From: Armatimonadota bacterium
GTDB taxonomy: Bacteria; Armatimonadota; HRBIN16
Assembly (NCBI GenBank): GCA_026003175.1
Contig: BPGT01000003.1
Span: forward strand, 186,001-250,000
Reading direction: 5' to 3'
Length of the DNA: 64,000 nt
Below the pieces are notes generated by a model. It was given only the letters and a program-made list of their open reading frames with translations. It searched no databases and had not been told where the DNA came from. Positions 28,632-63,227 of this stretch are shown here, one piece after another. Position 1 is the stretch's first letter, and every line of letters begins with the position of its first letter. The position numbers were made by a program, and so were the translations under genes.

Positions 28632-28650
28632 CCCAGCGGTTAGCATGCAA

Positions 28651-28681
28651 AAAAGCACCGGACGCTCTGTCCGGTGCTTTT
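28651..28681. terminator. Bidirectional rho-independent terminator
   Basis: Stem AAAAGCACCGGAC / GTCCGGTGCTTTT around a five-base loop. T runs occur on both strands, so it can end the GH127 message and the convergent minus-strand STN message. Confidence 0.93.
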
Positions 28682-28770
28682 GGGTTCTGGACAAAGCGAT
28701 TTTCGCGGTAAGGCTGGCTTGCAGCAAACCGGAGTAACAAGCTGGGTAGCCGGTCGCTTACAGAAGCAGG

Positions 28771-29574: not shown

Positions 29575-29671
29575 TTGTCTCACCTCCTCTGTCGCGCGCG
29601 ATAGAGGGTTTCCACTTGTTAAGACGCAGATAGATGGCGATAGGTTACTTCTCTATCATCTTCATTTTACC

Positions 29672-30607: not shown

Positions 30608-30745
30608 CTAGCGCATCCTCCGTATTGTGTTGCGCCGGAGGATGAGAACAATCCTGCTACAGGAACGCGCCTTGTGGATGTAGAAAAAGACATCACACAG
30701 CTACCGAGCAAAACAACAAGTTGCCGAATCGGGAGGAAAGCAGCG

Positions 30746-33145: not shown

Positions 33146-33201
33146 AGGGCTCTGCTGGTTTACAAATTTGACAAATTCACCCCCGTCATCGATCAAATTG
33201 C

Positions 33202-33230
33202 TTGACAAGTTTTTCGCAAAAGCCTACAAT
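33202..33230 (+). promoter_or_regulatory. Sigma-70-type promoter for the WD40-dockerin gene
   Basis: TTGACA at 33202-33207 and TACAAT at 33225-33230 with a 17-base spacer, about 40 bases before the start codon. Confidence 0.85.
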
Positions 33231-33269
33231 AGGCGTGGTTCGCAAACCTACTTTTTACCGGAGAAAGGG

Positions 33270-39099: not shown

Positions 39100-39154
39100 C
39101 AGCTTACACCTCCTTCCGAGGTGATTCATCTGCATTACTTTATTAACCATACTA

Positions 39155-45037: not shown

Positions 45038-45223
45038 GAGGGTGTTCGAAATTGCTGGTTGAATGGATAGATAACCTAACCCCCTTGCCCCCTTCCCTGC
45101 AAGGGAAGGGGGAACGCCCCTCTCCTCGTAGGAGAGAGGACGGGGGTGAGGTAAGGCAGGGATAGCAAGAACGCCTCTCTCCTTGCGCTACAACCAACTT
45201 CTCAACAATTCTCGAACACCCTC
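45038..45223. mobile_element. MITE-like element carrying a REP-like core
   Basis: A 186-base segment bounded by GAGGGTGTTC (45038-45047) and its complement GAACACCCTC (45214-45223). The inverted similarity continues inward for about 20 bases with one indel (CGAAATTGC against CGAGAATTGT). It has no gene. Its ends are the same as those of the adjacent IS, so the IS transposase could mobilise it. No target duplication is clear. Confidence 0.6.
45070..45155. repeat. REP-like double-hairpin repeat inside the MITE-like element
   Basis: Two dyads in series: CCCCCTTCCCTGCAAGGGAAGGGGG and CCCCTCTCCT...AGGAGAGAGG, framed by CCTAACCCCC and GGGGGTGAGG. It is the same family as 8282-8358, in the opposite orientation. 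Confidence 0.75.
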
Positions 45224-45228
45224 TCGAG

Positions 45229-46248
45229 CTCTGAGGGTGTTCAAAAAATCGGTTAGTATCGGGTATACCGATTCCATGAAACGACGATACCTACCACAAA
45301 GCAGACTCACTACCCTGTCGGTGAAGGTCATCTTCACCATCGTCCAACGCTTCTGCCAAATCCATCCTCTGCCCCCACGCCGCGGGCGACCCTACAAATA
45401 CCCCGAAGCGCTCATCCTCACCCTCCTCTTGCTGGGAGTGCGCGAAAACGCCTCCTACCGACGCCTACTGTTCGCCCTCGCCCCAGAACTGCTGCCCGAC
45501 CAACCCCTGCCTGCCTTAGGCACGCTCGCCTACCGCTTGCAGCATCTTGCAGACGAACGCCTGCACCAACTGCTCACTTGGCTTGCCCAGCAGGGCATCG
45601 CGTCAGAGACACCGACCCGTGAAACGCCGTGTGTGTTTGTGGATGGCACGGGCGTGGGGTATGCCTCACCGTTTTTGGCGCAGTATTTGCGTGGGGCACA
45701 GGTACGTCAGCAGCGGTCGCATGTGAAGGTGGTGGCGTTGGGGTGTTGGCAGGGGGGTCGGGTGTGGGTGATGGGGTTATCGTGTGGGGGGGCATATGCG
45801 GATGAGGGGCGTCTGTTGTGGGAGTGGGTGGAGCGTCATGGGCTTGGTGGTTTGTCGTGTGGCACTTTATTAGTTGGGGACGGGTTGTATGGTTATCGGG
45901 CGCAGTTATTGGTTGCGTTGGAGCGTGCGGGTTGGTTGCCTGTGGCAGTGGTTCGGGATGGCGTGTGGCAGCAGGTGCGTGCGGATGCGCGGTTGCGTGC
46001 GCGTGCACGTGCGCAGACATATGGTTGGGCGTTGCGGGAGCGTTATCGGATAGAGCAGGTGTTTGGTAGTGTGAAGGGAGCTTATGGGAGTGTGTGGCGA
46101 GCGCGTTCGTGGGTGGTTGCACGGGTGTGGGTGTGGGGCATGTTTGTGTTGTGGAACATGGTGGGTGTGGTGCAGGTGGCTGGTAGCGGTTGTTTTGTGT
46201 GTTGGTGGTGGGTGTGGGGTCTATGCGATTTTTCGAACACCCTCAGAG
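45229..46248. mobile_element. Insertion sequence with 24-bp terminal inverted repeats
   Basis: Ends 45229-45252 and 46225-46248 are inverted copies with two mismatches, with the outer core GAGGGTGTTC at 45233 and GAACACCCTC ending at 46244. One transposase gene fills the element, about 1.0 kb in all. I could not identify a target duplication. The right end lies a few bases before the promoter of the next gene. Confidence 0.85.
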
Positions 46249-46256
46249 GCTATTGA
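45276..46256 (+). CDS. IS4/IS5-superfamily DDE transposase
   Basis: The ATG at 45276 gives 326 residues, and the stop lies just past the right inverted repeat. The N-terminal helical region (GRPYKYPEALILTLLLLGVRE) is typical of IS5-like transposases. Candidate catalytic residues are Asp123 in FVDGTGVG, Asp202 in LVGDGLYGY and Glu260 in YRIEQVFGSVK, the YREK-type signature. Base composition flips within the gene: the first ~350 bases are C-rich, the remaining ~600 G/T-rich, giving a Trp/Val-rich C-terminal half. The frame is intact, so the element may be active. Confidence 0.85.
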   Translation: MKRRYLPQSRLTTLSVKVIFTIVQRFCQIHPLPPRRGRPYKYPEALILTLLLLGVRENASYRRLLFALAPELLPDQPLPALGTLAYRLQHLADERLHQLLTWLAQQGIASETPTRETPCVFVDGTGVGYASPFLAQYLRGAQVRQQRSHVKVVALGCWQGGRVWVMGLSCGGAYADEGRLLWEWVERHGLGGLSCGTLLVGDGLYGYRAQLLVALERAGWLPVAVVRDGVWQQVRADARLRARARAQTYGWALRERYRIEQVFGSVKGAYGSVWRARSWVVARVWVWGMFVLWNMVGVVQVAGSGCFVCWWWVWGLCDFSNTLRGY

Positions 46257-46356: not shown

Positions 46357-47445
46357 ATGGTCTGTATCAAGGCTTTACTATGCGCAACGGTCTCGCTGTT
46401 CTTGTTTACTTCTCTGCACGCCGCGCCTATCTACACGGAAGACTTCGAGGGAGCAACCCAGACAGTGGACTGGGACCTGAACACGGGAGATAGCCCCCTG
46501 GACCTCAATGTTCCTTTCCAGGCGACCCTGCCTGCCGACTGGATTTACGGCAACGACGGCTGGGGGCTCACCTCGGGTTGGGATGTCATCAGCCTGCAGC
46601 CGTATGCCTACCAGGGACGTTCCTTCCACTCGTGGGCTATTTACGACTCGCACAAGGCAGCGTCTCCCACGCTTTTCCTGAACCCCGGCAGATACCGACT
46701 ATCCTTCTGGCTAAGGATGGGTGGTCTGCGGCCACTGGACAACAATCCAGGGCTTGCTACATGGGTAGAGTGGGGCATCCTGAAGAAAGAGAACGGCTTA
46801 AACGACAATCAGCCCGGCGCGCCCGGCTGGAGCAAGTCACCCATTCCGCAGGGTAATTTCATGGACTGGACACACTTTAGCGTCACCTTCGATATCACCA
46901 CAGCAGGCGAATATCGTGTCGGGTTCAAGATTGGCTCTATCACTCCCTACGGTGTGTATGCTAATGTGGACAACCTTGTCCTGGAAAGCGCGGCGGCGCT
47001 CAGCGGCACGGTTACCCTCGGGGACTATGAGGGCGACTACACCCGGCAAAATATCACCGTCCGCGTGCTGAACCCTGCCGACCACAGCGATGTAAAAGCG
47101 GAGGTGTCCACACCTTTGGCATCCGATGGAGCGTATGAGGTTGCTGATTTGGGCGTGGCAGCGGGCACATACGACATTGCGCTAAAAGCCTCCCACTGGT
47201 TGACCACGATTGTGCCGGGTGTGACTCTACCCGGCGGTACCGCAAGTGCTACCCTACGCAACGGCGACATCGACGGCGACGATGAGGTGACCCTGTTTGA
47301 CTTCGGTGCACTGGTCGCCGCATTTGGTTCAGTGCCCGGCGACAGCAACTGGAACCCTGACGCCGACCTGGACGGGGACCTGGAGGTTACCTTGTTCGAT
47401 TTCGGCGTACTGGTACGCAACTTCGGAGAGATAGGCGAGGAGTAA
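46357..47445 (+). CDS. Secreted beta-sandwich protein with dockerin-like doublet
   Basis: A 362-residue protein with AAGGAGAG upstream. A signal peptide (LLCATVSLFLFTSLHAAP) is followed by a jelly-roll-like domain at ~25-215 (YTEDFEG, RLSFWLRMGG, YANVDNLVLES) of the kind found in carbohydrate-binding modules. A carboxypeptidase-regulatory-like domain spans ~215-300, then two calcium loops (DIDGDDEVTLFD, DLDGDLEVTLFD) end the protein. The gene is under the promoter and palindrome at 46253-46299, so it is likely sugar-regulated. Ligand unknown. Confidence 0.82.
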   Translation: MVCIKALLCATVSLFLFTSLHAAPIYTEDFEGATQTVDWDLNTGDSPLDLNVPFQATLPADWIYGNDGWGLTSGWDVISLQPYAYQGRSFHSWAIYDSHKAASPTLFLNPGRYRLSFWLRMGGLRPLDNNPGLATWVEWGILKKENGLNDNQPGAPGWSKSPIPQGNFMDWTHFSVTFDITTAGEYRVGFKIGSITPYGVYANVDNLVLESAAALSGTVTLGDYEGDYTRQNITVRVLNPADHSDVKAEVSTPLASDGAYEVADLGVAAGTYDIALKASHWLTTIVPGVTLPGGTASATLRNGDIDGDDEVTLFDFGALVAAFGSVPGDSNWNPDADLDGDLEVTLFDFGVLVRNFGEIGEE

Positions 47446-49008: not shown

Positions 49009-49107
49009 GTCTACGTGCCAAGCAAAGGGAGCAACCTCCACTCAACGTACGGGATTGCTTCTCCGGCGCTTGCAACGACGCGATGCCTGTTCAAAAGGAT
49101 GGGTAAT

Positions 49108-51498
49108 ATGCTGCGGTATGGTGCGCTATATGCTGTTTTTCTTCTACTGCTGGTTCATGCTTCTGCCTTTGCAGATGGCTGGATAAGCGGTAAGGTGACC
49201 GATATGCTGGGGCGAGGGGTGTACGAAATCGCCGTATGGGCAAGCTCCAGCCAGACCGGCTACACCTATTCCGCAAGCACCGCTACCGACGGCACGTACA
49301 TGATTACCCTGCCCGCAGGAACGTATACTGTTGGCTTGCGCGACCCGTTTCACTTTCGTGTCCAGATGCGCCACGGTGTGGTGGTGCGCGACAGCAGGAC
49401 GACACCGCTGAACTTTACCCTGTACAACACCGTGTGGACGGATGACCCCACCTGGTTTGTGGACTGGCATCGGGTGTACGCCCAGAGCTTTATCGCCGAC
49501 GGCACGTCGGTGGTAAAGGTGACGGCGCGGGTGGCCTCAGAAGCGACCACCATCAACGTCTCTATCCACGAGGACGGACCCGACGGGCTTCAGGTTGGAC
49601 CGACGCGCACCCTGTATGCCGGACAAAGCGGAAGAGGAACTGCTGCCTGGCACGCGGGCGAAGTGCCGGTGGTTCCCGGCAGGCGGTACACGGTGGTGCT
49701 GCGCCGATCGGACAACGCCCTGTGGTCTACTTACATGAGTCGCCCTCTCTACTTCGGCACGGATGCCTATCCTGATGGTTATGCTACTGTGGATAGCGTG
49801 CCGATGCCGGATCTGGACCTGGGAATCACCATCAGTTGTGATAACGATGGACACTCCACCTTCTATCACGTGCGCCACAATAACGGCGGGCAGTGGGTGA
49901 GCGAAGCAGTGCAGAGCTTCGTCGCACGAGGAAGCAGCCTGACGTCCGTCAGCTTCACCCCGGGTGGTGTGAACAACGTCTGGTTTATAGTGAGCGTACA
50001 CACCGCTCCCTCTGGTGGTCAAACTGTCGGCGCGGTACGCACCGTACGAGGCTGGGCGGATAACCCCATGATGGTGTGCTGGTCGCCCGGTGAGGTGCCG
50101 CTGACACCCGGGCAGACCTACTACCTGCGCATTCGGCGTACCACAGGAGAGGGGTTCTATATCTATCTCGCCAGTAATGCCTATCCCGATGGTATGGTGT
50201 ATCTGAACGGAACCGCCCAGCCCGGGCTGGACCTGGGAAGTTGTGTCATGACCACAGAAGAGTACCCGGGCGCGGTGAAGCCCAGGCTGCAGGTGTATAG
50301 CTTGATGACCACCAGTGTTACCTCGCGCGCGGCATCGTTGTACTGGCGCACCAGCGCGCCCGCCGATTCGGTGGTGGAGTACAGCACAGACACGCCATAC
50401 AATCAAGCGGTAAGCAACCCATCCCTGACAAACATCCACGAGGTAAGCCTCAGCGGTTTAGAGCCACATACTCTCTATCACTTTCGGGTGCGCTCACGGG
50501 CAGACGGCTACATCGATGGGGTGAGCGGGGATAACACCCTGCTCACCCTGCCGGAGACGCCCAACCTGTTGGCGAACGGCGGTTTTGAAACGGGCACGCC
50601 GGCGGGGTGGACGTATTTCGGCGCGTCCGACGGCGTATACGAGGGTCCCTGGTTCAAAGACCTGCGGGCGGTGGAAGGACGCTTTTTCATCGGCTGGGCG
50701 ACCAACGGCGGCACGCGCAACGGCGGCGTGTGGCAGCGCGTGGTGGCGATGCCCGGCAGGGAGTACTGTTTCAGCGCATGGGCGTGGACGTGGTGCTCGA
50801 ACATTCCCATGTACAACCTGTCGGTGCGTATCGGTATAGACCCGTTCGGCGGGACCAACCCCAATGCGCCCGGTGTGGTGTGGACGCCGTGGAGCGTGCA
50901 TTTTGATCGCTGGCATCCGCTGTGGGTTCGAGTGACAGCGCAATCCGACTATGTCACGGTTTTTCTGCAAGGACACGCCGATTCGCCCGCCGAGTGGAAC
51001 ATCTACGCCTTCGATAACGCGGTGCTCACCGAGCGGGCGCAACGGTTCAACGTGAGCGGCAAGGTAACGCTCGGCGATTTTGTCGCTTCGCCCGAGGGGG
51101 TCCCTGTGGAGATGCAGCTACGCGCTTCAGGCAGTGCCGAACCTTTGCGCACGGAGATACTGACGCTGGATGCGGTGGGCAACTACATCCTGACCGATGT
51201 GGAGCCCGGGCAGTACGACATCGCCTTCAAGGCAAGCCACTGGCTGAGGGCTGTGGTGAGGGGGGTACGGGTTACCAGCGCAGACGTGCAGGATGTGGAT
51301 GTTCTGCTGCTCAACGGCGACATCGATGGAGACAACGAGGTAACCCTGTTTGACTTCGGTGCACTGGTCGCCTCATTTAGTTCAGTGCCCGGTGACAGCA
51401 ACTGGAACCCTGACGCTGACCTGGACGGGGATGAAGAGGTCACGTTGTTTGACTTTGGTGTGCTAGTGCGCCACTTTGGGAAAGTAGGAGAAGAGTAA
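49108..51498 (+). CDS. Large secreted multidomain protein with dockerin-like doublet
   Basis: I choose the ATG at 49108 (796 residues, MLRYGALYAV) because AAAGG lies at a workable distance; an ATG at 49099 is an alternative. A signal peptide is followed by a carboxypeptidase-regulatory-like domain (~20-95, GKVTDMLGRGVYEIAVWA), two beta-sandwich repeats (~120-390), an Fn3-like domain (~395-480, PHTLYHFRVRSRADG), a carbohydrate-binding-like domain (~490-640, NGGFETGTPAGW) and the shared end with two calcium loops. It is probably a surface binding protein or scaffold; no catalytic motif seen. Confidence 0.82.
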   Translation: MLRYGALYAVFLLLLVHASAFADGWISGKVTDMLGRGVYEIAVWASSSQTGYTYSASTATDGTYMITLPAGTYTVGLRDPFHFRVQMRHGVVVRDSRTTPLNFTLYNTVWTDDPTWFVDWHRVYAQSFIADGTSVVKVTARVASEATTINVSIHEDGPDGLQVGPTRTLYAGQSGRGTAAWHAGEVPVVPGRRYTVVLRRSDNALWSTYMSRPLYFGTDAYPDGYATVDSVPMPDLDLGITISCDNDGHSTFYHVRHNNGGQWVSEAVQSFVARGSSLTSVSFTPGGVNNVWFIVSVHTAPSGGQTVGAVRTVRGWADNPMMVCWSPGEVPLTPGQTYYLRIRRTTGEGFYIYLASNAYPDGMVYLNGTAQPGLDLGSCVMTTEEYPGAVKPRLQVYSLMTTSVTSRAASLYWRTSAPADSVVEYSTDTPYNQAVSNPSLTNIHEVSLSGLEPHTLYHFRVRSRADGYIDGVSGDNTLLTLPETPNLLANGGFETGTPAGWTYFGASDGVYEGPWFKDLRAVEGRFFIGWATNGGTRNGGVWQRVVAMPGREYCFSAWAWTWCSNIPMYNLSVRIGIDPFGGTNPNAPGVVWTPWSVHFDRWHPLWVRVTAQSDYVTVFLQGHADSPAEWNIYAFDNAVLTERAQRFNVSGKVTLGDFVASPEGVPVEMQLRASGSAEPLRTEILTLDAVGNYILTDVEPGQYDIAFKASHWLRAVVRGVRVTSADVQDVDVLLLNGDIDGDNEVTLFDFGALVASFSSVPGDSNWNPDADLDGDEEVTLFDFGVLVRHFGKVGEE

Positions 51499-51602: not shown

Positions 51603-52790
51603 ATGCGAGCAGGGGGTGTACTGATGTTGTTCTTGCTACTGGTTCTGCCTAAGCCGTTTTACGAATCGCAACTGCTTTTCCCACCGGAACGATGGCACAA
51701 CCACGGCTCCTGCATCGTGGAGCTGCCCAACGGCGATTTGCTGGTGTGCTGGTATAACGGCTCGGGCGAGCGCACCGCCGACGATGTGAAGGTAGAGGGG
51801 ATGCGCAAGCGCAAGGGCGCGAAGACATGGAGCGGTCGCTTCCTGATGGCGGATACCATCGGCTTCCCGGACTGCAACCCGTGTATGTTTGTGGACCCGC
51901 AAGGCAGGCTATGGCTGATGTGGGTGGCGATTATCGCTAATCTATGGGAGACCGCTCTGCTGCGTTACCAGATTTCGGACAACCCTCGCGGCACGGGCGC
52001 GCCCCGCTGGACGCATAGCGACATCCTGATACTCAAGCTGGGCGATGAGTTTGCAGAGATCGTGGCGAAACAGTGCGACGAGGACGAAAAGCGCATTGAC
52101 CAGATACTGCCGCCGGAACGCAAAGCAGAGGGGCTGGCTTATCTCGCCGAGCGACGCAAGAATGCAGCAGACAAGTACTTCCGGCGAATGGGTTGGATGA
52201 CGCGCGTGCATCCTTTTGTGCTGGACGGCAAGCGTATCATCGTGCCGCTCTACTCCGATGGCTTCGACTTTTCCATCATGGCAATCAGCGACGACGGAGG
52301 CAAGACATGGCAGGCGAGCCGTCCGCTGGTGAGTTTCGGAGGGGTGCAGCCCAGCCTGGTACAGAAGCGCGACGGCACGCTGGTCGCCTATATGCGCGAT
52401 AACGGACCACCTCCCCAGCGCGTGATGAAAAGCGAGTCGCGCGACGGAGGCATGACCTGGTCGCCGGTGGTGGACGATGACATCCCCAACCCCGGCTCCG
52501 GTCTGGAAGTGATTCGCCTGCAGAACGGGCACTGGGCAATGGTGTGCAACGACACCGAGCAGGGTAGACACCGCCTCGCCGTGCTTCTCTCCGACGACGA
52601 GGGCAACAGCTGGAAGTGGAAAAGGTATCTGGAGAACGACCCGCCCGGAGCAGGCTCCTACTCATATCCCTCCATCATTCAGGCGAAGGATGGCACCCTG
52701 CACGTCACCTACAGCTGGAGCCAGCCGGGCAAGGGTTCGTGTATCAAATACGCCCACTTCAATGAGCAGTGGGTGCTTCAGGGGGATTAG
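51603..52790 (+). CDS. Sialidase-fold (BNR repeat) protein
   Basis: A 395-residue protein with GGAGGAAA upstream of the ATG and a short N-terminal hydrophobic stretch that could be a weak signal peptide. It is a six-bladed propeller of the BNR/Asp-box class (SDDGGKTW, SRDGGMTW, SDDEGNSW). Family members are called exo-alpha-sialidase but many act on other acidic sugars, for example rhamnogalacturonan or uronate linkages. An Arg triad cannot be assigned confidently. It heads the locus and abuts the next gene, so the two are cotranslated. Confidence 0.8.
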   Translation: MRAGGVLMLFLLLVLPKPFYESQLLFPPERWHNHGSCIVELPNGDLLVCWYNGSGERTADDVKVEGMRKRKGAKTWSGRFLMADTIGFPDCNPCMFVDPQGRLWLMWVAIIANLWETALLRYQISDNPRGTGAPRWTHSDILILKLGDEFAEIVAKQCDEDEKRIDQILPPERKAEGLAYLAERRKNAADKYFRRMGWMTRVHPFVLDGKRIIVPLYSDGFDFSIMAISDDGGKTWQASRPLVSFGGVQPSLVQKRDGTLVAYMRDNGPPPQRVMKSESRDGGMTWSPVVDDDIPNPGSGLEVIRLQNGHWAMVCNDTEQGRHRLAVLLSDDEGNSWKWKRYLENDPPGAGSYSYPSIIQAKDGTLHVTYSWSQPGKGSCIKYAHFNEQWVLQGD

Positions 52791-53867
52791 ATGGCGAAAG
52801 GCACCACGTACAACCACGAGCGCATCGAGTTCGTAGACGCCCGCACGGGTGTGCGCCTGATGCAGGTGACCAGCTTCCCCACTATGAGCATGGCGTTGCC
52901 CTACTTCGGGCGCAACTTCACCAGCGACTCGAAGACCCTCATCTTTGTCTCTCAGCGTGAGGCGCGTCGTGATGCCCCCTGGGACCTGTTTCGGGTGGAT
53001 ATAGATGGCACCAACCTGACGCAACTGACCGAGTGCGAAGGCGCGGCAGGGTTTGTGATGTCGCCGCAGGACGATTGCGCCTATTTCCACCGGCAGGGCG
53101 CATTGTGGAAGGTAGACATCAATACCTTCCGCGAAGAGGAGATACTGGCGCCGCATGGTGTGGCAAGTATGGGGGCAGGAGCCATCTCCCCTGACGGCGT
53201 GTACTATTTCGCGCAGGTGGTCACCGCACACGACACCAGCGGCATTGTGCGCATTCGCACCGACGGCTCGGAAGCGGTGCTCATCGCCGAGGGAGAGCGA
53301 GGGAGCCTTGCCCTGCACTCCGCCAGCCCGGGCGGCGCAGGGTTGCTGGTCTGGCAGATGCGTGAGGACAAGAAGAGGTGGCTGCTGCTGGGCGACAACG
53401 GCACAGAGAAGGGCGTGTACACCAGCAGTTACGACTTCGCACATTGCACCTTTCTGGGCAGGAGCGAGCGCGTGCAAGGGTGCGCGCTCCCACCCGACCG
53501 TGCGCTGGTGCATATCGGCTTGGGGGAAGAACAGCCAACCACCATCGCGCAAGGGGTATACTTCTGGCACTCCGCCTCCACGCTGGATGGTGAGTGGATT
53601 GTCTCCGACACCAACTGGCCCGACGAGGGCTTGCAGCTGGTGCATGTGCCGACGGGACGCTACCGCCCACTGTGTTACCCGCGCAGTGCACAGGGGCATC
53701 CGCAGTGGACGCATCCCCATCCGCAGTTCAGTCCCGACGGACGGGCGGTGCTGTTCCATTCGGACAGGACGGGCATCTGCCAGATTTATCTGGCGTTCGT
53801 TCCTGACGACCTGCGCGAGCGCGTACGCACCGGTCAGCTGAGCGTACAGGAGAGACGAGTGTGGTAG
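52791..53867 (+). CDS. Oligogalacturonate lyase-like (PL22-type) beta-propeller
   Basis: A 358-residue protein whose ATG directly follows the previous stop. The opening (TGVRLMQVTSFP, FTSDSKTLIFVS), central GTNLTQLTE and the end (HPHPQFSPDGRAVLFHSDRTG) match PL22 oligogalacturonide lyases, which split unsaturated digalacturonate in the cytoplasm. No signal peptide fits that location. Catalytic His and Mn ligands cannot be assigned without alignment; a TolB-like non-enzymatic propeller is the alternative. Confidence 0.68.
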   Translation: MAKGTTYNHERIEFVDARTGVRLMQVTSFPTMSMALPYFGRNFTSDSKTLIFVSQREARRDAPWDLFRVDIDGTNLTQLTECEGAAGFVMSPQDDCAYFHRQGALWKVDINTFREEEILAPHGVASMGAGAISPDGVYYFAQVVTAHDTSGIVRIRTDGSEAVLIAEGERGSLALHSASPGGAGLLVWQMREDKKRWLLLGDNGTEKGVYTSSYDFAHCTFLGRSERVQGCALPPDRALVHIGLGEEQPTTIAQGVYFWHSASTLDGEWIVSDTNWPDEGLQLVHVPTGRYRPLCYPRSAQGHPQWTHPHPQFSPDGRAVLFHSDRTGICQIYLAFVPDDLRERVRTGQLSVQERRVW

Positions 53868-55177
53868 ATCTGCGCTGGGCAGGCATATGGGCGATGCTGC
53901 TGGTGATAGCGGCGGGCATGACAGGGTGTCGCCCCCGCGACGAAGGCTCGTTTCCCTCACGCGCCATCACCATCATCTGCCCTCCTGCGCCGGGTGGTGT
54001 TTCCGATACACTGACGCGCGCGCTGGCAGCTTCCGCTCAGCCAGAGTTTGGCGTGCCGGTGGTAGTAGAGAACAAACCGGGCGGTGCGAACGCCGTGGGA
54101 CTGAATTATGGAGCACACGCCGCACCCGATGGCTACACGGTGACCTATGTGGTCGCAGAGCTGGCTATCCTGCCGCATCTCGGCTTGAGTCCTATCTCCC
54201 CCAATGACTTTGACTTGCTGGCTCGCACCAACTATAACCCGGCAGCCGTGACCGTACGAGCCGATTCGCAGTGGGCCACACTGCAGCAGCTGATGGCAGA
54301 CGCTCGCGCCCACCCGGAGGCGATACGCGCAGGCAACTCGGGCACCGGCTCGATATGGCATCTGGCGGCGGTTGCTTTACAGGAGGCAGGGGGGGCGAAG
54401 TTCAAGCACGTGCCTTTCAGTGGAGCCGCTCCGGCAGTGCAGGCGTTACTGGGTGGGCATGTAGACGTGGTATGCGTCAGTCCCACCGAGGTGCAGGCGC
54501 ATGTGGAATCGGGAAAATTGCGGATGCTCGCCGTGCTCACCACTCAGCGTGATCCCCTCTTTCCCCATGTGCCGTGTGCCCGCGAACTGGGCTATCCGCT
54601 GGATATCGGCGCGTGGGGAGGGTTGGCTCTGCCCAAAGGCGTCCCAATGGAGAGGAGACAGAGGCTGCTGGAAGGTTTCCGCAAAGCGTTCGGCAAGCGC
54701 GAGTTCCGGCAGCTGATGGAGGAACGGGGTGTGCGTCTGGCGTGGCTGGAGGGAGAACCGTTCCGTCAATTTGTGGAAGCGCAAAGCACGCTCAACCGTC
54801 AGATCATCGCCCGCATGGGCGTGAACCTCACGCGAGGGGATGTTGGGCATCTCTACTTTCCGGGACTACTTGCGGTCCTGGCAGTGGGGCTGGCGATAGC
54901 CATAGTCGGGGCACGTCTGGCGGGCGGACGCGGTGAGCGCGTGGAAGCCCACACTCCAGTTGGAAGACGGCAGTCGGCGATGATGAGTACACTCACTCTT
55001 GCTTTCATCGCTCTGCTACCTGTGGCAGGCTTTCTGGCTGCATCTGCGCTCTTTCTGCTCACTGCGATAGCCATCACCGGACGTGTCAGGTGGTGGCAGG
55101 CAGTGGTGTATGCAAGTGTAGTGAGCCTGAGCGTGTGGTGGTTGTTTGGCAGCATACTGGGGGTACCTATGCCATGA
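53861..55177 (+). CDS. TctC-TctB fusion of a tripartite tricarboxylate transporter
   Basis: A 438-residue protein from the GTG at 53861, overlapping the previous stop, with CAGGAGAG upstream. Residues 1-23 are a signal sequence ending in a lipobox (AAGMTGC). Residues ~30-310 are a Bug/TctC binding protein (GGVSDTLTRALA, VVVENKPGGAN, GNSGTGSIWHLAAV). From ~318 to the end are about four hydrophobic segments, as in TctB (YFPGLLAVLAVGLAIAIVG, LALLPVAGFLAASALFLLTA). Normally these are separate proteins. The next gene, TctA, overlaps by four bases. Confidence 0.82.
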   Translation: MVDLRWAGIWAMLLVIAAGMTGCRPRDEGSFPSRAITIICPPAPGGVSDTLTRALAASAQPEFGVPVVVENKPGGANAVGLNYGAHAAPDGYTVTYVVAELAILPHLGLSPISPNDFDLLARTNYNPAAVTVRADSQWATLQQLMADARAHPEAIRAGNSGTGSIWHLAAVALQEAGGAKFKHVPFSGAAPAVQALLGGHVDVVCVSPTEVQAHVESGKLRMLAVLTTQRDPLFPHVPCARELGYPLDIGAWGGLALPKGVPMERRQRLLEGFRKAFGKREFRQLMEERGVRLAWLEGEPFRQFVEAQSTLNRQIIARMGVNLTRGDVGHLYFPGLLAVLAVGLAIAIVGARLAGGRGERVEAHTPVGRRQSAMMSTLTLAFIALLPVAGFLAASALFLLTAIAITGRVRWWQAVVYASVVSLSVWWLFGSILGVPMP

Positions 55178-56643
55178 GCAACGTCTTCCAGCAGCTGTGG
55201 TCAGACAACACGATGTGGTTGATGTTGGGGGGTGTGGTGGCAGGCATCGTGATTGGTGCTCTGCCGGGTTTGACTGCCACGATGGGCGTAGCGTTACTGG
55301 TTCCCTTTACCTTCTGGCTACCTACCGTACCTGCGCTGATGGTGCTTCTGGGTGTGTATGTAGGCGCAATGTACGGAGGAGCGATACCAGCGGTGCTGAT
55401 ACGCACTCCGGGCACACCCGCTGCGGCGGCGACCAGTCTGGACGGCTACCCGATGGCGCAGGAAGGCAAGGCAGGACTGGCGATAGGTATCTCGTGCATG
55501 ACGGGCGTGGTAGGCGGGGTGTTCAGCACTCTGGTACTGATGTTCGCCGCACCGCAGGTGGCTCGATTCGCGCTACAGTTTGGTCCTGCGGAGTACTTCG
55601 CGCTGGCGGTGTTCGGGCTGAGTGTGATTGCCAGTCTGTCAGAGCGTTCCCTGCTGAAGGGCGCGCTGATGGGTGTGTGCGGATTGTTGCTCGCCACAAT
55701 AGGCATGGACCCGATTACCGCCGTACCGCGCTTCACTTTGGGGTTGACCCCGCTTCTGGAAGGACTGGCGCTGGTGCCCGTGCTAGTAGGTGTGTTCGCG
55801 CTGGGCGAGGTGCTGTACCAGAGTAGCCTGCCTGAACCTGATAGGAGCCTGTTCCACAACATCGGCAGGATAATGCCCTCGCGCAGCCACTACCGGCGCA
55901 TCGCTCTTCCGACACTGCTTGCCAGCATCACGGGCACGTTCATTGGAGCACTGCCCGGCGTGGGAGGCGATGTCGCCGCGTTTGTGGCGTATGACCAGGC
56001 GAAGAAGGTCTCGCGCCGACCGGAGGAGTTCGGCAAAGGCTCGATAGAAGGACTGGCGGCGGCAGAGTGTGCCAACAACTCAGTTACCGGGGGAGCGATG
56101 ATACCCATGCTCACTCTGGGCATCCCCGGCGACGCGGTGACAGCGGTTATCCTGGGCGCGTTGCTGATGCACGGCGTGCGCCCCGGTCCCGACCTGTTTG
56201 AGAAGCAGACCTATCTGCTCTCCGCCATCTTCATCGGTTTGCTGGTCGCAAACCTGCTGGTGTTGCCCATAGGGCTGGCAGGCGCGAAACTCTTTGCGCA
56301 GACGGTGCGTGCACCTCGCCATTACCTGTTTCCGCTGATAGTGGTGTTGTGCGTAGTGGGCAGTTACGCCATTAACAACAGCCTGTTCGATGTCGGTGTC
56401 ATGTTCCTGTTCGGCATAGTGGGCTGGGCACTGCGGCAAGCAGGCTTCCCGATTGCTCCGCTCGTGCTGGGTTTGATTTTAGGGCGCATGACCGAAGAGA
56501 ACTTCCGCCGTGCACTGATTCTGTCGGGAGGTAGCTGGAGCATTTTTGTGAGCCGTCCACTGTCGGCAATTTTATTGTTGCTGGCGGTGGCATCGGTGAC
56601 GTTTTCGGTATGGCAGAGCAGACGGGGTGGGCACAAGGCGTAG
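55174..56643 (+). CDS. tctA: TctA-family large permease subunit
   Basis: The ATG at 55174 overlaps the fusion gene's stop (ATGA); 489 residues. About twelve hydrophobic segments and the family's signatures are present: VIGALPGLTATMGVALLVPFT, GAMYGGAIPAVLI near the N-terminus, and the repeated IGALPGVGGDVAAFVAYDQAKK at mid-length. It is the channel subunit of a secondary transporter for tri-, di- or mono-carboxylates, in some cases hexuronates. The neighbouring uronide-lyase-like gene favours an acidic sugar as substrate. Confidence 0.92.
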   Translation: MSNVFQQLWSDNTMWLMLGGVVAGIVIGALPGLTATMGVALLVPFTFWLPTVPALMVLLGVYVGAMYGGAIPAVLIRTPGTPAAAATSLDGYPMAQEGKAGLAIGISCMTGVVGGVFSTLVLMFAAPQVARFALQFGPAEYFALAVFGLSVIASLSERSLLKGALMGVCGLLLATIGMDPITAVPRFTLGLTPLLEGLALVPVLVGVFALGEVLYQSSLPEPDRSLFHNIGRIMPSRSHYRRIALPTLLASITGTFIGALPGVGGDVAAFVAYDQAKKVSRRPEEFGKGSIEGLAAAECANNSVTGGAMIPMLTLGIPGDAVTAVILGALLMHGVRPGPDLFEKQTYLLSAIFIGLLVANLLVLPIGLAGAKLFAQTVRAPRHYLFPLIVVLCVVGSYAINNSLFDVGVMFLFGIVGWALRQAGFPIAPLVLGLILGRMTEENFRRALILSGGSWSIFVSRPLSAILLLLAVASVTFSVWQSRRGGHKA

Positions 56644-56836
56644 TTGCGCAGGAAGAAATGGCTCCCTGAGGAATACAGGGTATAGGTCAGGGCTTCGTGG
56701 TGGGGGCTTTGCCCCAGCGAGGTTCGCAAGGACACCGTGGTAGCGCGATGGAACGCGACCATTCGTTGGGCAGACTGCTGGATTGTTGGCTTTAACGCAC
56801 TGTCTTAAAGGAGGCTAACCTGTCAGGGGGTATACG
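56644..56836. other. Gap between tctA and the large glycosidase-like gene
   Basis: Contains a small GGGGCTTTGCCCC hairpin (about 56705-56717) and an AAAGGAGG about 25 bases before the next start. No gene is evident. Confidence 0.5.
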
Positions 56837-59800
56837 ATGATGCAGGGTACCACCTTGAAGCCGATTGTGCCCGATGCACCGATTGTCAACCTGGACGAAA
56901 TCGGGCTGTATGCTATCGGCTATGCCTACCGCGGGCAGGAGGAACGGTTGTTCCCCACAGGCTGGAGCGGATTCTTTGAGGAACGTACGGGCGTCGCCTG
57001 TCAGCCAGTGGGTATCGTCAACGGCAAACAGGCTTTCTTGCTGCACTGCCCCTGGCGCGGGGGGACGGGTGTCACTTTCCAGACCTTCACCTTCCAGCTG
57101 CCCAGAGCAAGAAGTGCGTTCCTGCGCGGGTTCACCGCCATGCGCCCCGACATCGTGGACAGGTCGGATGGGGCCACCTTCCGAATCTTCGTGAACGGCA
57201 AAAAGGTGATGGAAGAGCATCGAACCGACGCGCAGTGGAAGCCATTCCGCATAGACCTCTCGCCATATATGGGACAGACGGTGAGCATCCGTTTTGAAAC
57301 CGACCCTGGGCCTGGGGATAACCCGTCTTTCGACTTCTCGTTGTGGGCGCAGCGCGAGCTGGTGCTGGAGGGCTACCAGCCTAAATCCGTCCAACGTCCT
57401 GCACCGCCCCTTTTGAAACTGTCCAGTCTCTACTCTGCGCCCAACGGCACAATGGCTCCGCGCAGTGCATTTGCCCACAAAAACACGGTGGAGATGCGGG
57501 CAGACACCGCTGTGTTCCGCTATCAGGGCAGTGACGGCGTGCTGGAGTATCGTTGGCGCAAGCCATCCCCCAATGGCTCGAACCCGCTGGGCGAGTGGAC
57601 GCTGCGGGCTCAGATGAAAGGAGATACCCCGGTGCAGGTTCCTCTGGCGACCGCCGCCAGCTTGCAATGGGTGGTTGAACAACCCACCAGCAGCACGCAG
57701 TGGGAGCAGCGCGGCGACTCGGTGGTGTGTACCCGACGCTATGTGGTGGGCAGGGCGGGCGTGACCGTGCGCATCACAGCACGTCTCTTCCACAAAAGCC
57801 TCGTTCTTACTCTGGAAGCTGACCGCCCTGGCGTGACCCTGTTCGATGCAGGCGGCTGGGGTCCCGTGTTCCGACGCAAACAGGTCACCACGCCCTACTA
57901 CGGAGGCCAGGTGTTCTATCTCCCCGCCGAGAACCTGTTCGTAAACGCCCAGCTGGACTGGACACATAGTCACGCCACCAGCCACGACGGCTTGCGGGCG
58001 CACTACGGCGCGTTGACCGATGGCAGCCGCAATCCCCTGCGCGAGCGCGTGGTTTTCACCGCGGCATGGCACGCTGCCGAAGTGCTCCCCAACATCCCCA
58101 ACCCGCCCTCGCCTTTCCTCAAGCAAGTGGGCGATAGGATTGTGCTGGACATCTGGGGCGGACGGTTCGTGGACATCGCCCGTGACTTCGAGCGGCTGAA
58201 AGAGTATGGCATCGACAGGTGTATCGCGCTCATCCACGTATGGCAGCGCAGCGGTTACGACAACGCCCTGCCCATGCACATTCCCGCGATGGCGGAGTTG
58301 GGCGGCGACGAAGGCATGAAAGAGCTGGTGCAGACGGGTGTGAAGCTGGGCTATCTCGTCGCCCTGCACGAGAACTACGTGGACTACTATCCCAACTACG
58401 ACCACTATGATGACGACGACATCGCTCTGGATTCGCAGGGCAACAAACAGCTGGCGTGGTTCAATCCGGGCACGAAAATACAATCTTTCGCGGTAAAGCC
58501 CAACGCCATCCTGCGCCTCGCCGCTACCCAGTCACCCGAAATCCACCGTCGCTACGGCACCAACGCCTGTTATCTGGACGTGCATTCGGCGGTTCCGCCC
58601 TGGTTCCACGTGGACATGCGGGCAGGTGAGGAGGGTGCAGGCATGTTCCGGCGCGTGTGGGACGTACACCGCGCCTTGTGGGAGTACGAGCGCAAGACAC
58701 ACGGCGGTCCCGTCTTCGGCGAAGGCAACAACCACTGGTACTGGAGCGGTTGTCTGGACGGCGTGGAAGCGCAGTTCGGCACTGGATGGGCATGGGGACA
58801 GGGGCTGCAGGCGCCGCTGGCGGTGGACTTCGACCTGCTGAAAATCCATCCCCTGCAGTGTAATCACGGTATGGGTTACTACGAACGCTGGTGGAGCGAC
58901 GCCAAATGGGGTAGCATACCTCCCATGATCGTTATGGACCAGTACCGGATGCAGGAGGTGGCGTATGGGCACGCGGGCTTCCTCGGTAGTGCGGTGTGGA
59001 ACCTGATACCCTACGCCTGGCTGGAGCATCACCTACTGACCCCCGTGATGGCGCGTTACGCTACCGCCAAACCACTGAGCATTGAGTACCATGTGGGAGG
59101 CAAATGGGTGGACAGCACCACCGCCGCCAAAGCGGGCAACTGGCAGCGCGTGCGCATCCGCTATGACAGCGGCTTGACCGTGGTGGCGAATAATGCGGAG
59201 GAACCGTTGCGCACCGGCACCGTCATCTTGCCTCAGTTTGGCTGGCTGGCAACAGGGGCAGGAGTTACTGCCTATACCGCCCTGCGGCTGGGCGTGGTGG
59301 TGGACTATAGCGAAACCGCTGATGTCCTCTTCGCCAACGCCCGCAACATCGCGCACTGGAACCTGACCGGATTGAAGCGCATCCGCCCGGAGGTAGCGCA
59401 ATTCGAGCAGACGGGGGCACGCACCTTCCGTGTGACCTACCGCTGGCGAGTGAGCGATACGCTAGACAGGGATTACTTTTGCTTTGTGCACTTCAGCCAG
59501 CTGCCACCCGAACCTTGGGACGAAGGCATCAAGTTCCAGCAAGACCATCCTCTGCCCAAGCCCACCAGCCGATGGCAACGCGGCGAAGAGGTGGTGGACG
59601 GTGAGTACACCGTGACCGTGCCTGAGACCATCCCTGATGGCGACTACCAGTGGACTATCGGCTTGTATGCGCTGGGCGGGGGTGGGCGTGTCAATCTGGA
59701 AGGCGAGGTAGACCGTCACGGGCGAAACCTGTTGGGGGTATTGCAGGTGCGCGATGGCGGCAGAATCATCCGCTTCGTGCCCGAAAGCAACACGGGCGCA

Positions 59801-60088
59801 TATCGGCTGGCACTGTACCGAAGCCATCTGAACGAAGAGGGCGAGGTGATAGACTTCGGGGCGGTGCGCACCAACGGCAGCGTGCTGGTACGCCGTCAGG
59901 GGCGTGGATGGTCGCTGATCGCCTATCCGCGCGAGGGCAACTTCGTAATAGATCTGAACGCCTCCCGCTTCCCCGCGCCTCAGCGTGTGCAATGCGTAGA
60001 CGGCGATGTGCCCTTTGTGCAACCGGTGCGGCAGGGCGGATGGTGGCGATTGCGCCTGAACGGGGCGCGGATGTATACCTGGGAGTGA
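56837..60088 (+). CDS. Large TIM-barrel glycosidase-like protein (GH101/GH129-like)
   Basis: A 1083-residue cytoplasmic-type protein without signal peptide. An N-terminal ~200-residue beta domain (TFRIFVNGKKVMEE, VSIRFETDPGPGDNPSFDF) looks like NPCBM or similar. A supersandwich-like region precedes a TIM barrel at about 430-720 (HVWQRSGYDNALP, HENYVDYYPNYD). Candidate nucleophile Asp581 lies in CYLDVHS and candidate acid/base Glu629 in VFGEGNN, 48 residues apart, a spacing close to GH101 and GH129. C-terminal beta domains complete it. The assignment to that clan is an inference; DUF5696-like proteins are similar. Confidence 0.6.
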   Translation: MMQGTTLKPIVPDAPIVNLDEIGLYAIGYAYRGQEERLFPTGWSGFFEERTGVACQPVGIVNGKQAFLLHCPWRGGTGVTFQTFTFQLPRARSAFLRGFTAMRPDIVDRSDGATFRIFVNGKKVMEEHRTDAQWKPFRIDLSPYMGQTVSIRFETDPGPGDNPSFDFSLWAQRELVLEGYQPKSVQRPAPPLLKLSSLYSAPNGTMAPRSAFAHKNTVEMRADTAVFRYQGSDGVLEYRWRKPSPNGSNPLGEWTLRAQMKGDTPVQVPLATAASLQWVVEQPTSSTQWEQRGDSVVCTRRYVVGRAGVTVRITARLFHKSLVLTLEADRPGVTLFDAGGWGPVFRRKQVTTPYYGGQVFYLPAENLFVNAQLDWTHSHATSHDGLRAHYGALTDGSRNPLRERVVFTAAWHAAEVLPNIPNPPSPFLKQVGDRIVLDIWGGRFVDIARDFERLKEYGIDRCIALIHVWQRSGYDNALPMHIPAMAELGGDEGMKELVQTGVKLGYLVALHENYVDYYPNYDHYDDDDIALDSQGNKQLAWFNPGTKIQSFAVKPNAILRLAATQSPEIHRRYGTNACYLDVHSAVPPWFHVDMRAGEEGAGMFRRVWDVHRALWEYERKTHGGPVFGEGNNHWYWSGCLDGVEAQFGTGWAWGQGLQAPLAVDFDLLKIHPLQCNHGMGYYERWWSDAKWGSIPPMIVMDQYRMQEVAYGHAGFLGSAVWNLIPYAWLEHHLLTPVMARYATAKPLSIEYHVGGKWVDSTTAAKAGNWQRVRIRYDSGLTVVANNAEEPLRTGTVILPQFGWLATGAGVTAYTALRLGVVVDYSETADVLFANARNIAHWNLTGLKRIRPEVAQFEQTGARTFRVTYRWRVSDTLDRDYFCFVHFSQLPPEPWDEGIKFQQDHPLPKPTSRWQRGEEVVDGEYTVTVPETIPDGDYQWTIGLYALGGGGRVNLEGEVDRHGRNLLGVLQVRDGGRIIRFVPESNTGAYRLALYRSHLNEEGEVIDFGAVRTNGSVLVRRQGRGWSLIAYPREGNFVIDLNASRFPAPQRVQCVDGDVPFVQPVRQGGWWRLRLNGARMYTWE

Positions 60089-60092
60089 GAGC

Positions 60093-63000
60093 ATGGACAC
60101 CTTCGACATCGCGCCATTCGCATTGCCGAACTGCGAACCAGGAGAGTACCGCTTTGAGGAGCCTCGCGATATCCGTCAGGTGCGGCTGCGTTTCAGGGGA
60201 GGGATACCTTCTTCGCTAAACGTCTACTACCTGCGCAAAACATGGCCCGATATGCGCATCGAGTATGCACGCGACCTGGATAACCCCTGCAGCTTCGGCT
60301 GGACGCCCATAGACGACCAATTCAACACCCGGTGGCAGAAGGCGTCCATAGAGATTCATCCAGAGAGTGCCAACGTGGCGTTGGTCACGTTCAAGGGGCT
60401 GAGTGCGGAGTTTCCTGACCTGAAAGATTACGATGTAACTTTCCGGCGCACGCTTGGTGTTAGAGTAGAGGTGCCCAACGCGAAGCAGATTCTCGCGGTA
60501 AACATCTTCACCACCTCCACACCTCTACTAAGCCGCTTGCGCGTAGAGATCGATGCCGGGCGCGAAACCACTGGTAAACGTATCCGACTAAGCGCATACA
60601 ACGCCACCATCCGCGCCGTATTGTCTCCTAAAGGGGTGCGTTCGTCCCGCCGTATGGTGGAGCTGCTACCGGAGAAAGAGCGGTCGTTCGATCTGTACGT
60701 AGCACACATGCTTCCTGCACATCGCTATTGCGGCGACGAAGGGCACATTATCTTCTCACTGGATGACGACGTGTTCACTATCTCCCTGCAAAGCCTGAGA
60801 GAGCAGGGACCCATCTGGTACGCCGAAAAAGGCGTCTACATCACCTTTGCCGATGACCCCACTCGCTTCGCAGATTATCTGCAGCGCATCGAGGGCGCGA
60901 AGACGCTCAATCAGCGCGTCAGGGAACATCGCGAGCAGACTTACGCCGGCGCGTTTTACGGACAGCCTCGCCCACACGCCGTGAGCTATAATCTGGGCTG
61001 TAAGCACAACCGCCAGCGGTTCTGGCTGGAAGCCAACGGCGACCTGGTGCTGCATCGGTGGAACGTGACCAGCATCCCGGGTCAGGACACTGCCCGCTTC
61101 CTGTGTGACGGCAACGCGCGCTTCTTCTTTGGTCTGGAGCACAAAACCATCCTCGCCCGTTACACCGATGCGCCCCCTGTGCTGGCATACTACATTCGCG
61201 CACGTGATGGCGACATCGTCATCGAGCAGGAGAGCTTCGCGGTGCCGCTGGAACGTTCCATCCTCGATGAGCCCTTGGCGAGCGACGACACGGTGGTAGC
61301 GCTGGTACGGTTCCGCTTCGAGAACCTGGGCGACGCGCCCGCGATAGCGGAGCTGCCCCTTTCCTACTCCCACCGTTCGGGCAGGTCCTACAATGCCTAC
61401 GCCAGCGATGGGTACCAGGACGACTATCTGGTTCCCCGCGGCGAGCGAGATACGCTGCTGGTAGAGGGCAATCATATCCTCTCGGAGTGGAACGGAAAGA
61501 GGGTGTTCCGCGCGCGCTGGGAGGGAGACATGCCAGTGGAGGCAGGAGACCGGCAGGTTGTTTTCCGCCGTACCCTGCAACCCGGCGAGGTGTGCGAACT
61601 GCTACTGAAGATACCCTATATTGCCATCGACCAGCCAGAAGAGCTGCAGGCTCTCCAGAGTCTATCTTTCGAGCAGTGCTACCGTGAGGTGGTTGCCTTC
61701 TGGCGGGCGCAGGCGCAGCAGGGGGCGCAGCTTGTCTGTCCTGAACCGCACCTGACTGCCCTGCACGCTGCACATCTGAACCATGTACTCATCACCGACG
61801 CCCTCATGCCCGACGGTAGCGGACTGATAAACACCTCCGTGGGCACCTCCACCTACGGCAATTTTACCAACGAGGCGTGCATGGTCACGCACGAGCTGGA
61901 TCAGCGCGGACTGCACGAGGAGGCTCGCAAGCGCATCGAGCTGTGGGTCAAGTATCAAGGAACCGCTCCCCAGCCAGGCAACTTCACCGACTACGAGGGG
62001 ATGTACTTCGGAGCGGGCGGATTCGAAAGCGGTGCGTACAACCAGCACCACGGATGGGTGTTGTGGTGTATCGGCATGCACTACTTCCTGACGGGCGACG
62101 CCGAGTGGCTGAGCCGCGTGGCTCCCTCGTTGATTGCAGGATGCGACTGGGTATTCCGACAGCGACGCAACACCATGCATAACCTGCCCCATTCTCGCGG
62201 ATGGGAGTACGGTTTCCTGCCCGCAGGCAGTCTGGAAGATGTGACCGATTTCCACTACTGGCTTTCGACCAACGCGCTCACCTGGCGCGGAGTGGACACG
62301 GCGGCGAAGGCGCTGGAAGCGATTGGTCACCCTGAGGCGGCACGCATCCGACGGGAAGCAGACGCCTATCGTGCCGACCTGATACGCGGCTTCGAAACCA
62401 TGCGGCAGCACAGCCCGTTAGTACGCCTGCGCGATGGGCGATGGGTTCCGCATTACCCCAGCCGTCTCTACCAGCGTGGACGCGACGTGGGCTGGATCCG
62501 CGAGGTACTGGAAGGTTCTGTCTACCTGTTGATCAGCGGCTTGTACGACGCCGACAGCGTGCAGGCGCAGTGGATTCTGGACGACTTTCAGGACAATCGC
62601 TATCCCACTCCGCCTTATGGATACCGGATCCCCGACTTCGAAGCGAATTGGTTTGACCGCGCGGGCTTTTCCATCCAGCCCAACCTGCTGGCAGGACTGA
62701 TGCCCCACTTAGAGCGTGACGAGCCAGAGATTTTCATCTGGATGTTTTTTAACGCATGGTGTGCCTGCTACCGCGAAGAGATTAACGCCATGATCGAACA
62801 CCCCATGCCCGTGCTAGGTTACTCCAACTCGGCGCACTTCAAAACCAGCGACGAGGCGAACGCGGTTTCGTGGCTCCGGGCGATGTTCGTGTATGCCAGT
62901 GAGAAGGTGCTGCATCTGGGGAGGGCGATACCGCGTGAGTGGTTCCATAGCGGCAAGCCGATAGCAACCACAGGCGTGTGCACACGCTACGGTACGGTAA

Positions 63001-63227
63001 GCGTAAGTTATCACGTTTCGGGTGATGGCAAGCGCATAAAAGCAGCAGTGGATTTGCAACTGCGAACCCAGCCTCCGAAGCTGCTCGTGCGCTTCCGCCA
63101 CCCAGAGAGCCTGCCTATCCGCGCCGTGCGCGTTAACAGTTCGCCGCACAATCGCTTTGACCCTCAACGCAACGATGTAGACATCACCGGCTACTTGGGT
63201 AAAGTGGTGATAGAGACGGCATTTTGA
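60093..63227 (+). CDS. Large (alpha/alpha)6 glycosidase-like protein
   Basis: A 1044-residue protein without signal peptide; GGGAGTGAGAGC precedes its ATG, five bases after the previous stop. The N-terminal ~480 residues are beta-rich. From ~520 to ~900 a helical toroid is apparent (LNHVLITDALMPDGSG, NFTNEACMVTHELDQRGLHEEARKRIELW, HHGWVLWCIGMHYFLTGD, GWEYGFLPAGSLED). This resembles GH78/GH95/GH127-type six-hairpin glycosidases, and a short C-terminal beta domain follows. I cannot name the family or pick the catalytic acids with confidence. It is probably the last enzyme of the locus. Confidence 0.6.
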   Translation: MDTFDIAPFALPNCEPGEYRFEEPRDIRQVRLRFRGGIPSSLNVYYLRKTWPDMRIEYARDLDNPCSFGWTPIDDQFNTRWQKASIEIHPESANVALVTFKGLSAEFPDLKDYDVTFRRTLGVRVEVPNAKQILAVNIFTTSTPLLSRLRVEIDAGRETTGKRIRLSAYNATIRAVLSPKGVRSSRRMVELLPEKERSFDLYVAHMLPAHRYCGDEGHIIFSLDDDVFTISLQSLREQGPIWYAEKGVYITFADDPTRFADYLQRIEGAKTLNQRVREHREQTYAGAFYGQPRPHAVSYNLGCKHNRQRFWLEANGDLVLHRWNVTSIPGQDTARFLCDGNARFFFGLEHKTILARYTDAPPVLAYYIRARDGDIVIEQESFAVPLERSILDEPLASDDTVVALVRFRFENLGDAPAIAELPLSYSHRSGRSYNAYASDGYQDDYLVPRGERDTLLVEGNHILSEWNGKRVFRARWEGDMPVEAGDRQVVFRRTLQPGEVCELLLKIPYIAIDQPEELQALQSLSFEQCYREVVAFWRAQAQQGAQLVCPEPHLTALHAAHLNHVLITDALMPDGSGLINTSVGTSTYGNFTNEACMVTHELDQRGLHEEARKRIELWVKYQGTAPQPGNFTDYEGMYFGAGGFESGAYNQHHGWVLWCIGMHYFLTGDAEWLSRVAPSLIAGCDWVFRQRRNTMHNLPHSRGWEYGFLPAGSLEDVTDFHYWLSTNALTWRGVDTAAKALEAIGHPEAARIRREADAYRADLIRGFETMRQHSPLVRLRDGRWVPHYPSRLYQRGRDVGWIREVLEGSVYLLISGLYDADSVQAQWILDDFQDNRYPTPPYGYRIPDFEANWFDRAGFSIQPNLLAGLMPHLERDEPEIFIWMFFNAWCACYREEINAMIEHPMPVLGYSNSAHFKTSDEANAVSWLRAMFVYASEKVLHLGRAIPREWFHSGKPIATTGVCTRYGTVSVSYHVSGDGKRIKAAVDLQLRTQPPKLLVRFRHPESLPIRAVRVNSSPHNRFDPQRNDVDITGYLGKVVIETAF

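What the first reader, a model, noticed from the sequence alone, without database searches (positions are those of the whole stretch)
51603..63227. Candidate undescribed acidic-polysaccharide utilisation locus
Six co-directional genes with overlapping or short junctions combine a sialidase-fold enzyme, a PL22-like lyase, a TctA plus TctCB transporter, and two proteins of more than 1000 residues with no clear family. The last two lack signal peptides. Coupling a secondary carboxylate transporter with large unclassified glycosidases differs from the SusCD and ABC loci usually described. I infer import of an unsaturated or acidic oligosaccharide and intracellular breakdown.
Basis: inference. Interest (0 to 1): 0.6.

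Follow-up and report, generated by a model that had tools for sequence, protein, structure and literature searches.

The report
Sugar-acid uptake operon, two joined modules
The six genes are real and very probably let an uncultured Armatimonadota bacterium release, import and break down a carboxylated sugar, but they are two gene modules joined only in some species, and the "sialidase" at the front lacks two residues of the standard sialidase active site.

Summary
All six co-directional genes are present at the stated coordinates. The organism is a Chthonomonadia (Armatimonadota) genome.

The array is two modules. A–B–C–D is a BNR_2 propeller, a PL22-like protein, a TctC–TctB fusion and TctA. 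E–F is a GH101/GH129-like retaining glycosidase and an (α/α)6-barrel glycosidase. In G001 and G005 the modules lie on separate contigs. In the three genomes where A–D is not next to E, a GH38-like gene sits between E and F. Outside the genus the genes are scattered.

New points:
(i) A is not a canonical sialidase. The first arginine of the triad is His34 and the catalytic Glu is Gln249, both invariant in 81/81 sequences; two arginines and the Tyr nucleophile remain.
(ii) A's partner transporter is swappable: TTT, galactonate-type MFS, or AspT-like. Sugar-acid aldolases or dehydratases sit beside A in other phyla. This points to a small sugar acid rather than an imported oligosaccharide.
(iii) C fuses the binding protein to TctB with TctB's first helix deleted, giving a membrane-tethered binding protein. 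The TTT review I read reports only rare TctAB fusions.

Substrate unknown. New variant of a known kind; interest moderate.

The parts
51603..52790 (+). gene A: exported BNR_2/sialidase-superfamily beta-propeller, non-canonical active site (H34, Q249, R265, R322, Y355)
   Evidence: Pfam BNR_2 1.4e-46; HMM alignment to M. viridifaciens sialidase; residues invariant in 81 sequences; orthologues carry an AGAQ signal-cleavage motif that this copy lacks
52791..53867 (+). gene B: cytoplasmic PL22-like (oligogalacturonate lyase-like) propeller; QWTHPH metal-site motif kept (Q305, H308, H310)
   Evidence: Pfam PL22 2.8e-18; alignment to 3pe7/3c5m; no signal or TM segment
53861..55177 (+). gene C: TctC substrate-binding protein (lipobox MTGC) fused to TctB lacking its first helix
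   Evidence: Pfam TctC at residues 52-320, TctB profile positions 25-137; alignment with stand-alone TctB of L133 and G090
55174..56643 (+). gene D: TctA permease (start at the ATG at 55174, 489 aa)
   Evidence: Pfam TctA 1.8e-155
56644..56836 (+). 193-bp junction between the two modules; no promoter-like or terminator-like match inside it in the pattern scan
56837..60088 (+). gene E: GH101/GH129-like retaining alpha-glycosidase, predicted nucleophile D581 and acid/base E629, intracellular
   Evidence: AlphaFold model pLDDT 89.8, Foldseek GH101/GH129 1e-17, D581 aligned with NagBb D435, invariant in 24
60093..63227 (+). gene F: (alpha/alpha)6-barrel glycosidase with N-terminal super-beta-sandwich, no sequence family, intracellular
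   Evidence: no Pfam or PDB sequence match; model pLDDT 84.3; Foldseek GH95/GH94-type 4.5e-15

Best explanation
A two-module sugar-acid scavenging locus. Step 1 (inferred): the exported BNR_2 propeller A removes a terminal carboxylated sugar (a uronate or ulosonate type residue) from an external glycan. It holds the carboxylate with R265 and R322 and uses Y355, with H34 and Q249 replacing the sialidase Arg and Glu; it is therefore either a mechanistically altered hydrolase or a lyase. Step 2 (architecture shown, function inferred): the released anion is captured by a binding protein covalently joined to the small subunit of a TTT transporter (C) and taken up through TctA (D). Step 3 (inferred): the cytoplasmic PL22-like propeller B acts on an acidic product. 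In some species the E-F pair, two intracellular glycosidases (E retaining, of GH101/129 type; F (alpha/alpha)6, probably inverting), has been placed directly downstream and would handle the rest of the same glycan or a co-occurring one. Confidence: small carboxylated sugar as the A-D ligand about 0.7; E-F on the same substrate about 0.45; exact substrate unknown.
For: Anatomy and order. Transporter swap next to A: TTT in G000, G001, G002, G004, G005, G007, G008, G009 and Acidobacteriota L133; galactonate-type MFS directly behind A or A-B in G003, G007, G042, G070, G083, L148 and L150; AspT-like permease in G095 and L143. Sugar-acid enzymes beside A elsewhere: DapA/NanA-type aldolase in L133, HpaI/GarL-type aldolase in L182, galactonate-dehydratase-like protein in L155. 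PTE-like (lactonase-type) gene just upstream of A in G002, G004 and G007. R265, R322 and Y355 retained, H34 and Q249 invariant. Signal motif in A orthologues, none in B, E, F. E catalytic pair retained. G009 and G002 also have the transporter genes directly before E; in G002 D and E overlap.
Against: No substrate or activity data. Outside Armatimonadota most A genes have unrelated neighbours. E-F and A-D lie apart in G001 and G005, G003 lacks C at E-F, and the 193-bp D/E gap leaves room for a promoter. B is missing in G008 and G009, so B is not essential. The genome lacks UxaC, and its only KduI-family hit is IolB, so the usual hexuronate route is not seen; NanE is present.
Confidence: 0.6

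Rival explanations
1. One reading: the TTT imports an unsaturated or acidic oligosaccharide which B, E and F then break down inside the cell.
For: B keeps the PL22 metal motif and PL22 enzymes act on small oligouronides in the cytoplasm (established knowledge); E and F lack signal peptides.
Against: The alternative transporters next to A are all of families known for small carboxylates (PMC5812351 for TTT ligands); B is absent in G008 and G009 while A-C-D is kept.
Confidence: 0.2
2. Two unrelated loci that happen to adjoin: A-D takes up and uses a sugar acid, E-F is a separate neutral-glycan pair.
For: Separate in G001, G003 and G005; unlinked outside the genus; 193-bp gap at the join; Chthonomonas genomes are known to have few operons.
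Against: The join is kept in G000, G004, G002, G009 and probably G007, with D/E overlapping in G002; a distant F paralogue lies upstream of A-MFS in G042.
Confidence: 0.3
3. A is an ordinary sialidase and the locus is for sialic acid.
For: Closest solved relatives are GH33 sialidases; a NanE homologue is in the genome; a NanA/DapA-type aldolase lies next to A in L133.
Against: First Arg of the triad and the catalytic Glu replaced in 81 of 81 family members; the aldolase scores best as DapA-type and below every cut-off.
Confidence: 0.1

Closest known systems
GH33 exo-sialidases (Micromonospora viridifaciens sialidase, 1eur)
   Same: BNR/Asp-box propeller, two of three triad arginines, Tyr nucleophile position
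   Different: First Arg is His34 and catalytic Glu is Gln249, invariant in the family
PL22 oligogalacturonate lyases (3c5m, 3pe7)
   Same: N-terminal blade and C-terminal QxxHPH metal motif, cytoplasmic
   Different: Blades in the middle (about 120-300) do not match; very divergent
TTT transporters (TctABC)
   Same: TctC, TctB and TctA components; reported ligands include sugar acids (galactarate/glucarate; PMC5812351)
   Different: TctC and TctB are one chain and TctB lacks its first helix
GH129 / GH101 (NagBb 5wzn, EngBF 2zxq, ZgGH129 5opq)
   Same: Fold and catalytic Asp/Glu pair
   Different: 9-14% identity over the fold, longer than GH129, no signal peptide; DUF5696-related branch
GH95/GH94-type (alpha/alpha)6 glycosidases
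   Same: Super-beta-sandwich plus (alpha/alpha)6 barrel
   Different: No sequence similarity detectable; TM about 0.3-0.4 by query length; unclassified

Membership tests
GH33 sialidase | Arg triad with three arginines | tested here: not met
   R265 and R322 kept; the first position is His34 in 81/81; the His34 correspondence was made by hand by spacing from the PNGDLL/PDGDLL motif
GH33 sialidase | Catalytic Tyr/Glu pair | tested here: not met
   Y355 kept; Glu aligned with invariant Gln249
GH33 sialidase | Release of sialic acid | not testable with these tools
   needs assay
PL22 | C-terminal Gln-x-x-His-Pro-His metal site | tested here: met
   PQWTHPHPQFSPD aligned with RQVTHPHPSFTPD of 3pe7
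PL22 | Whole-length family match and remaining catalytic residues | tested here: inconclusive
   score over cut-off, but only residues 1-119 and the C-terminus match
TTT transporter | TctA, TctB and TctC all present | tested here: met
   with TctC-TctB fused
GH129/GH101-like | Fold and Asp nucleophile / Glu acid-base | tested here: met
   the acid/base assignment E629 is inferred from invariance
GH129/GH101-like | Profile match over the Pfam GH101 cut-off | tested here: not met
   19 bits against 25
SusCD-type PUL | SusC/SusD pair | tested here: not met
   none among the six genes

The most novel reading that the evidence does not exclude
Gene A belongs to a widespread, so far uncharacterised enzyme family (seen here in Armatimonadota, Verrucomicrobiota, Acidobacteriota, Planctomycetota, Hydrogenedentota and others) that uses a His/Gln-altered sialidase scaffold, perhaps as a lyase, to free sugar acids; it is coupled to a new TTT architecture in which the binding protein replaces the first helix of TctB.
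Probability: 0.35. Interest if true: 0.6.

Novelty: new variant of a known kind. Interest (0 to 1): 0.42.

Why it matters
Proteins like A match the BNR/sialidase profile and could easily be taken for sialidases in soil and groundwater genomes; the altered active site and the conserved pairing with sugar-acid transporters give a testable alternative function. The tethered TctC-TctB chain offers a natural one-piece version of a poorly understood transporter class, useful for biochemistry and structure. F is a glycosidase fold with no sequence family.

Tried and rejected
Rfam and tRNA scans of the window: nothing. KduI as a marker of unsaturated uronate use: the hit is IolB. UxaC: absent. Pooled Pfam scan of A's neighbours in other phyla: no dominant partner family, at most three members with any one family, such as sulfatase. 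E's neighbours outside the genus: housekeeping or unrelated genes. Plasmid search for the TctC-TctB fusion: 0 of 947 records cover 80% of the chain. Literature for TTT plus polysaccharide lyase and for TctC-TctB fusions: no description found.

Full report
Observation. The window lies in a 4.1-Mb genome (G000) whose nearest named relative in the collections is a Chthonomonadia bacterium, phylum Armatimonadota. All six reported genes exist on the + strand at the stated positions. A/B abut, B/C and C/D overlap by 7 and 4 bp, E/F are 4 bp apart, but D/E are separated by 193 bp. The pattern scan found no promoter-like or terminator-like site within that gap; this scan is weak evidence.

Gene A. Pfam gives BNR_2 at 1.4e-46 and the nearest solved structures are GH33 sialidases. 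In the profile alignment to M. viridifaciens sialidase, R276, R342 and Y370 of that enzyme (numbers from my own knowledge, checked against the spacing in the alignment) fall on R265, R322 and Y355 of A, whereas the catalytic Glu260 falls on Gln249. By spacing from the PNGDLL/PDGDLL motif the first arginine falls on His34; this part is outside the HMM alignment and was done by hand. His34, Gln249, R265, R322 and Y355 are identical in all 81 sequences compared, 80 of them from a genome-wide scan across several phyla. The scan used two motifs of the family, so R57, D60 and D61 are biased by selection; His34 and Gln249 are not. A is therefore not filed as GH33. Orthologues have a LPAGAQ|KP signal-cleavage motif; the window copy has lost those four residues.

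Gene B. PL22 profile match over the cut-off, in the first blade and the C-terminus, including the QxxHPH metal motif. No signal peptide. Orthologues outside the genus exist in few genomes and stand apart from A-type genes. B is absent from G008 and G009.

Genes C and D. C is a lipobox-bearing TctC joined to TctB; the TctB part begins at profile position 25, and alignment with stand-alone TctB proteins shows that the first membrane helix is missing. Since TctB's first helix would run from inside to outside, replacing it with a periplasmic domain keeps the remaining helices in place; this topology is inferred. The fused form was found in eight genus members and in one genome of another family, G230, among 291 genomes of the phylum; G090 and the Acidobacteriota locus L133 have separate chains. 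A review of the transporter class reports only rare TctAB fusions (PMC5812351). D is a TctA.

Genes E and F. E folds confidently (pLDDT 89.8) and matches GH101/GH129 structures; D581 aligns with NagBb D435, the catalytic nucleophile as I know it, and D581 and E629 are invariant in 24 sequences. F folds well (pLDDT 84.3) into a super-beta-sandwich plus (alpha/alpha)6 barrel, nearest to GH95 and GH94-type enzymes, without any sequence match in Pfam or the PDB. Both are probably active glycosidases, F probably inverting by analogy (inference).

Modularity. A-B-C-D-E-F is contiguous in G000, G004 and G002, and A-C-D-E-F in G009, whose two contigs share a 141-bp identical end. In G001 and G005, A-D is on another contig than E-F; in G003, A-B is followed by an MFS gene and C is absent. 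In these three genomes a GH38-like gene with a PL4-type carbohydrate-binding domain sits between E and F; it is absent in all four genomes where the transporter is known to precede E. On E and F trees G003 groups with G009, inside the joined species, so the arrangement has changed more than once. Outside the genus E and F are in unlinked places.

Function. The most useful clue is what follows A. A is followed, directly or after B, by the TTT in eight genus members; by an MFS protein of the galactonate-transporter type in G003, G007, G042, G070, G083 and two Chthonomonas-like or other Armatimonadota genomes (L148, L150); and by an AspT-type permease in G095 and, one gene later, L143. Only eleven close copies of this MFS were seen in 101 genomes and five of them adjoin A, so chance is not plausible. 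In Acidobacteriota L133 a TctCBA set and a DapA/NanA-family aldolase lie next to A; a HpaI/GarL-type aldolase follows A in L182 and a galactonate-dehydratase-like gene in L155. A PTE-type gene precedes A in G002, G004 and G007, but is elsewhere in G000. Most other A loci have unrelated neighbours. The common reading is release and uptake of a small sugar acid. The usual hexuronate isomerase UxaC is absent and the only KduI-family protein is IolB; a NanE homologue is present. These do not settle the substrate.

Verdict. Real locus, ordinary in kind (carbohydrate scavenging), with three features worth following: the altered sialidase scaffold, the swappable sugar-acid transporter, and the tethered TTT binding protein. 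Functional linkage between the two halves remains open.

Noticed in passing
window 51603-51660: A lacks the four residues AGAQ (12 bp) at the signal-peptide cleavage motif that genus orthologues keep; assembly error or real change not distinguished.
   Followed up: partly
L023:5665-9054, L026:8579-11986, L028:8857-12255: GH38-like protein with PL4 domain III-type CBM between E and F in G003, G001, G005, absent where A-D precedes E.
   Followed up: partly
window 46357-47445 and 49015-51498: Two secreted-looking proteins end in near-identical dockerin-like modules (DGDxEVTLFDFG...); weak Dockerin_1 match for the second.
   Followed up: no
window 45183-46256: DDE transposase about 5.3 kb upstream of gene A.
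   Followed up: no
window 26139-33145: GH127 and GH51-type arabinofuranosidase genes in the same window.
   Followed up: no
window 34810-39150: 1446-aa BcrAD_BadFG/DUF2229 activase-type protein.
   Followed up: no
window 13390-18153: 1587-aa protein made largely of WD40 repeats; a second WD40 protein at 33168-34703.
   Followed up: no
G007:C68 and G007:C256 (L116, L100): G007 holds both versions: PTE-A-B-MFS and A-C-D-E, with two different E copies; duplication or a mixed assembly.
   Followed up: partly
L110:8228-12241: Three or more A-type genes in tandem in G090, next to a GH38 gene on the other strand.
   Followed up: no
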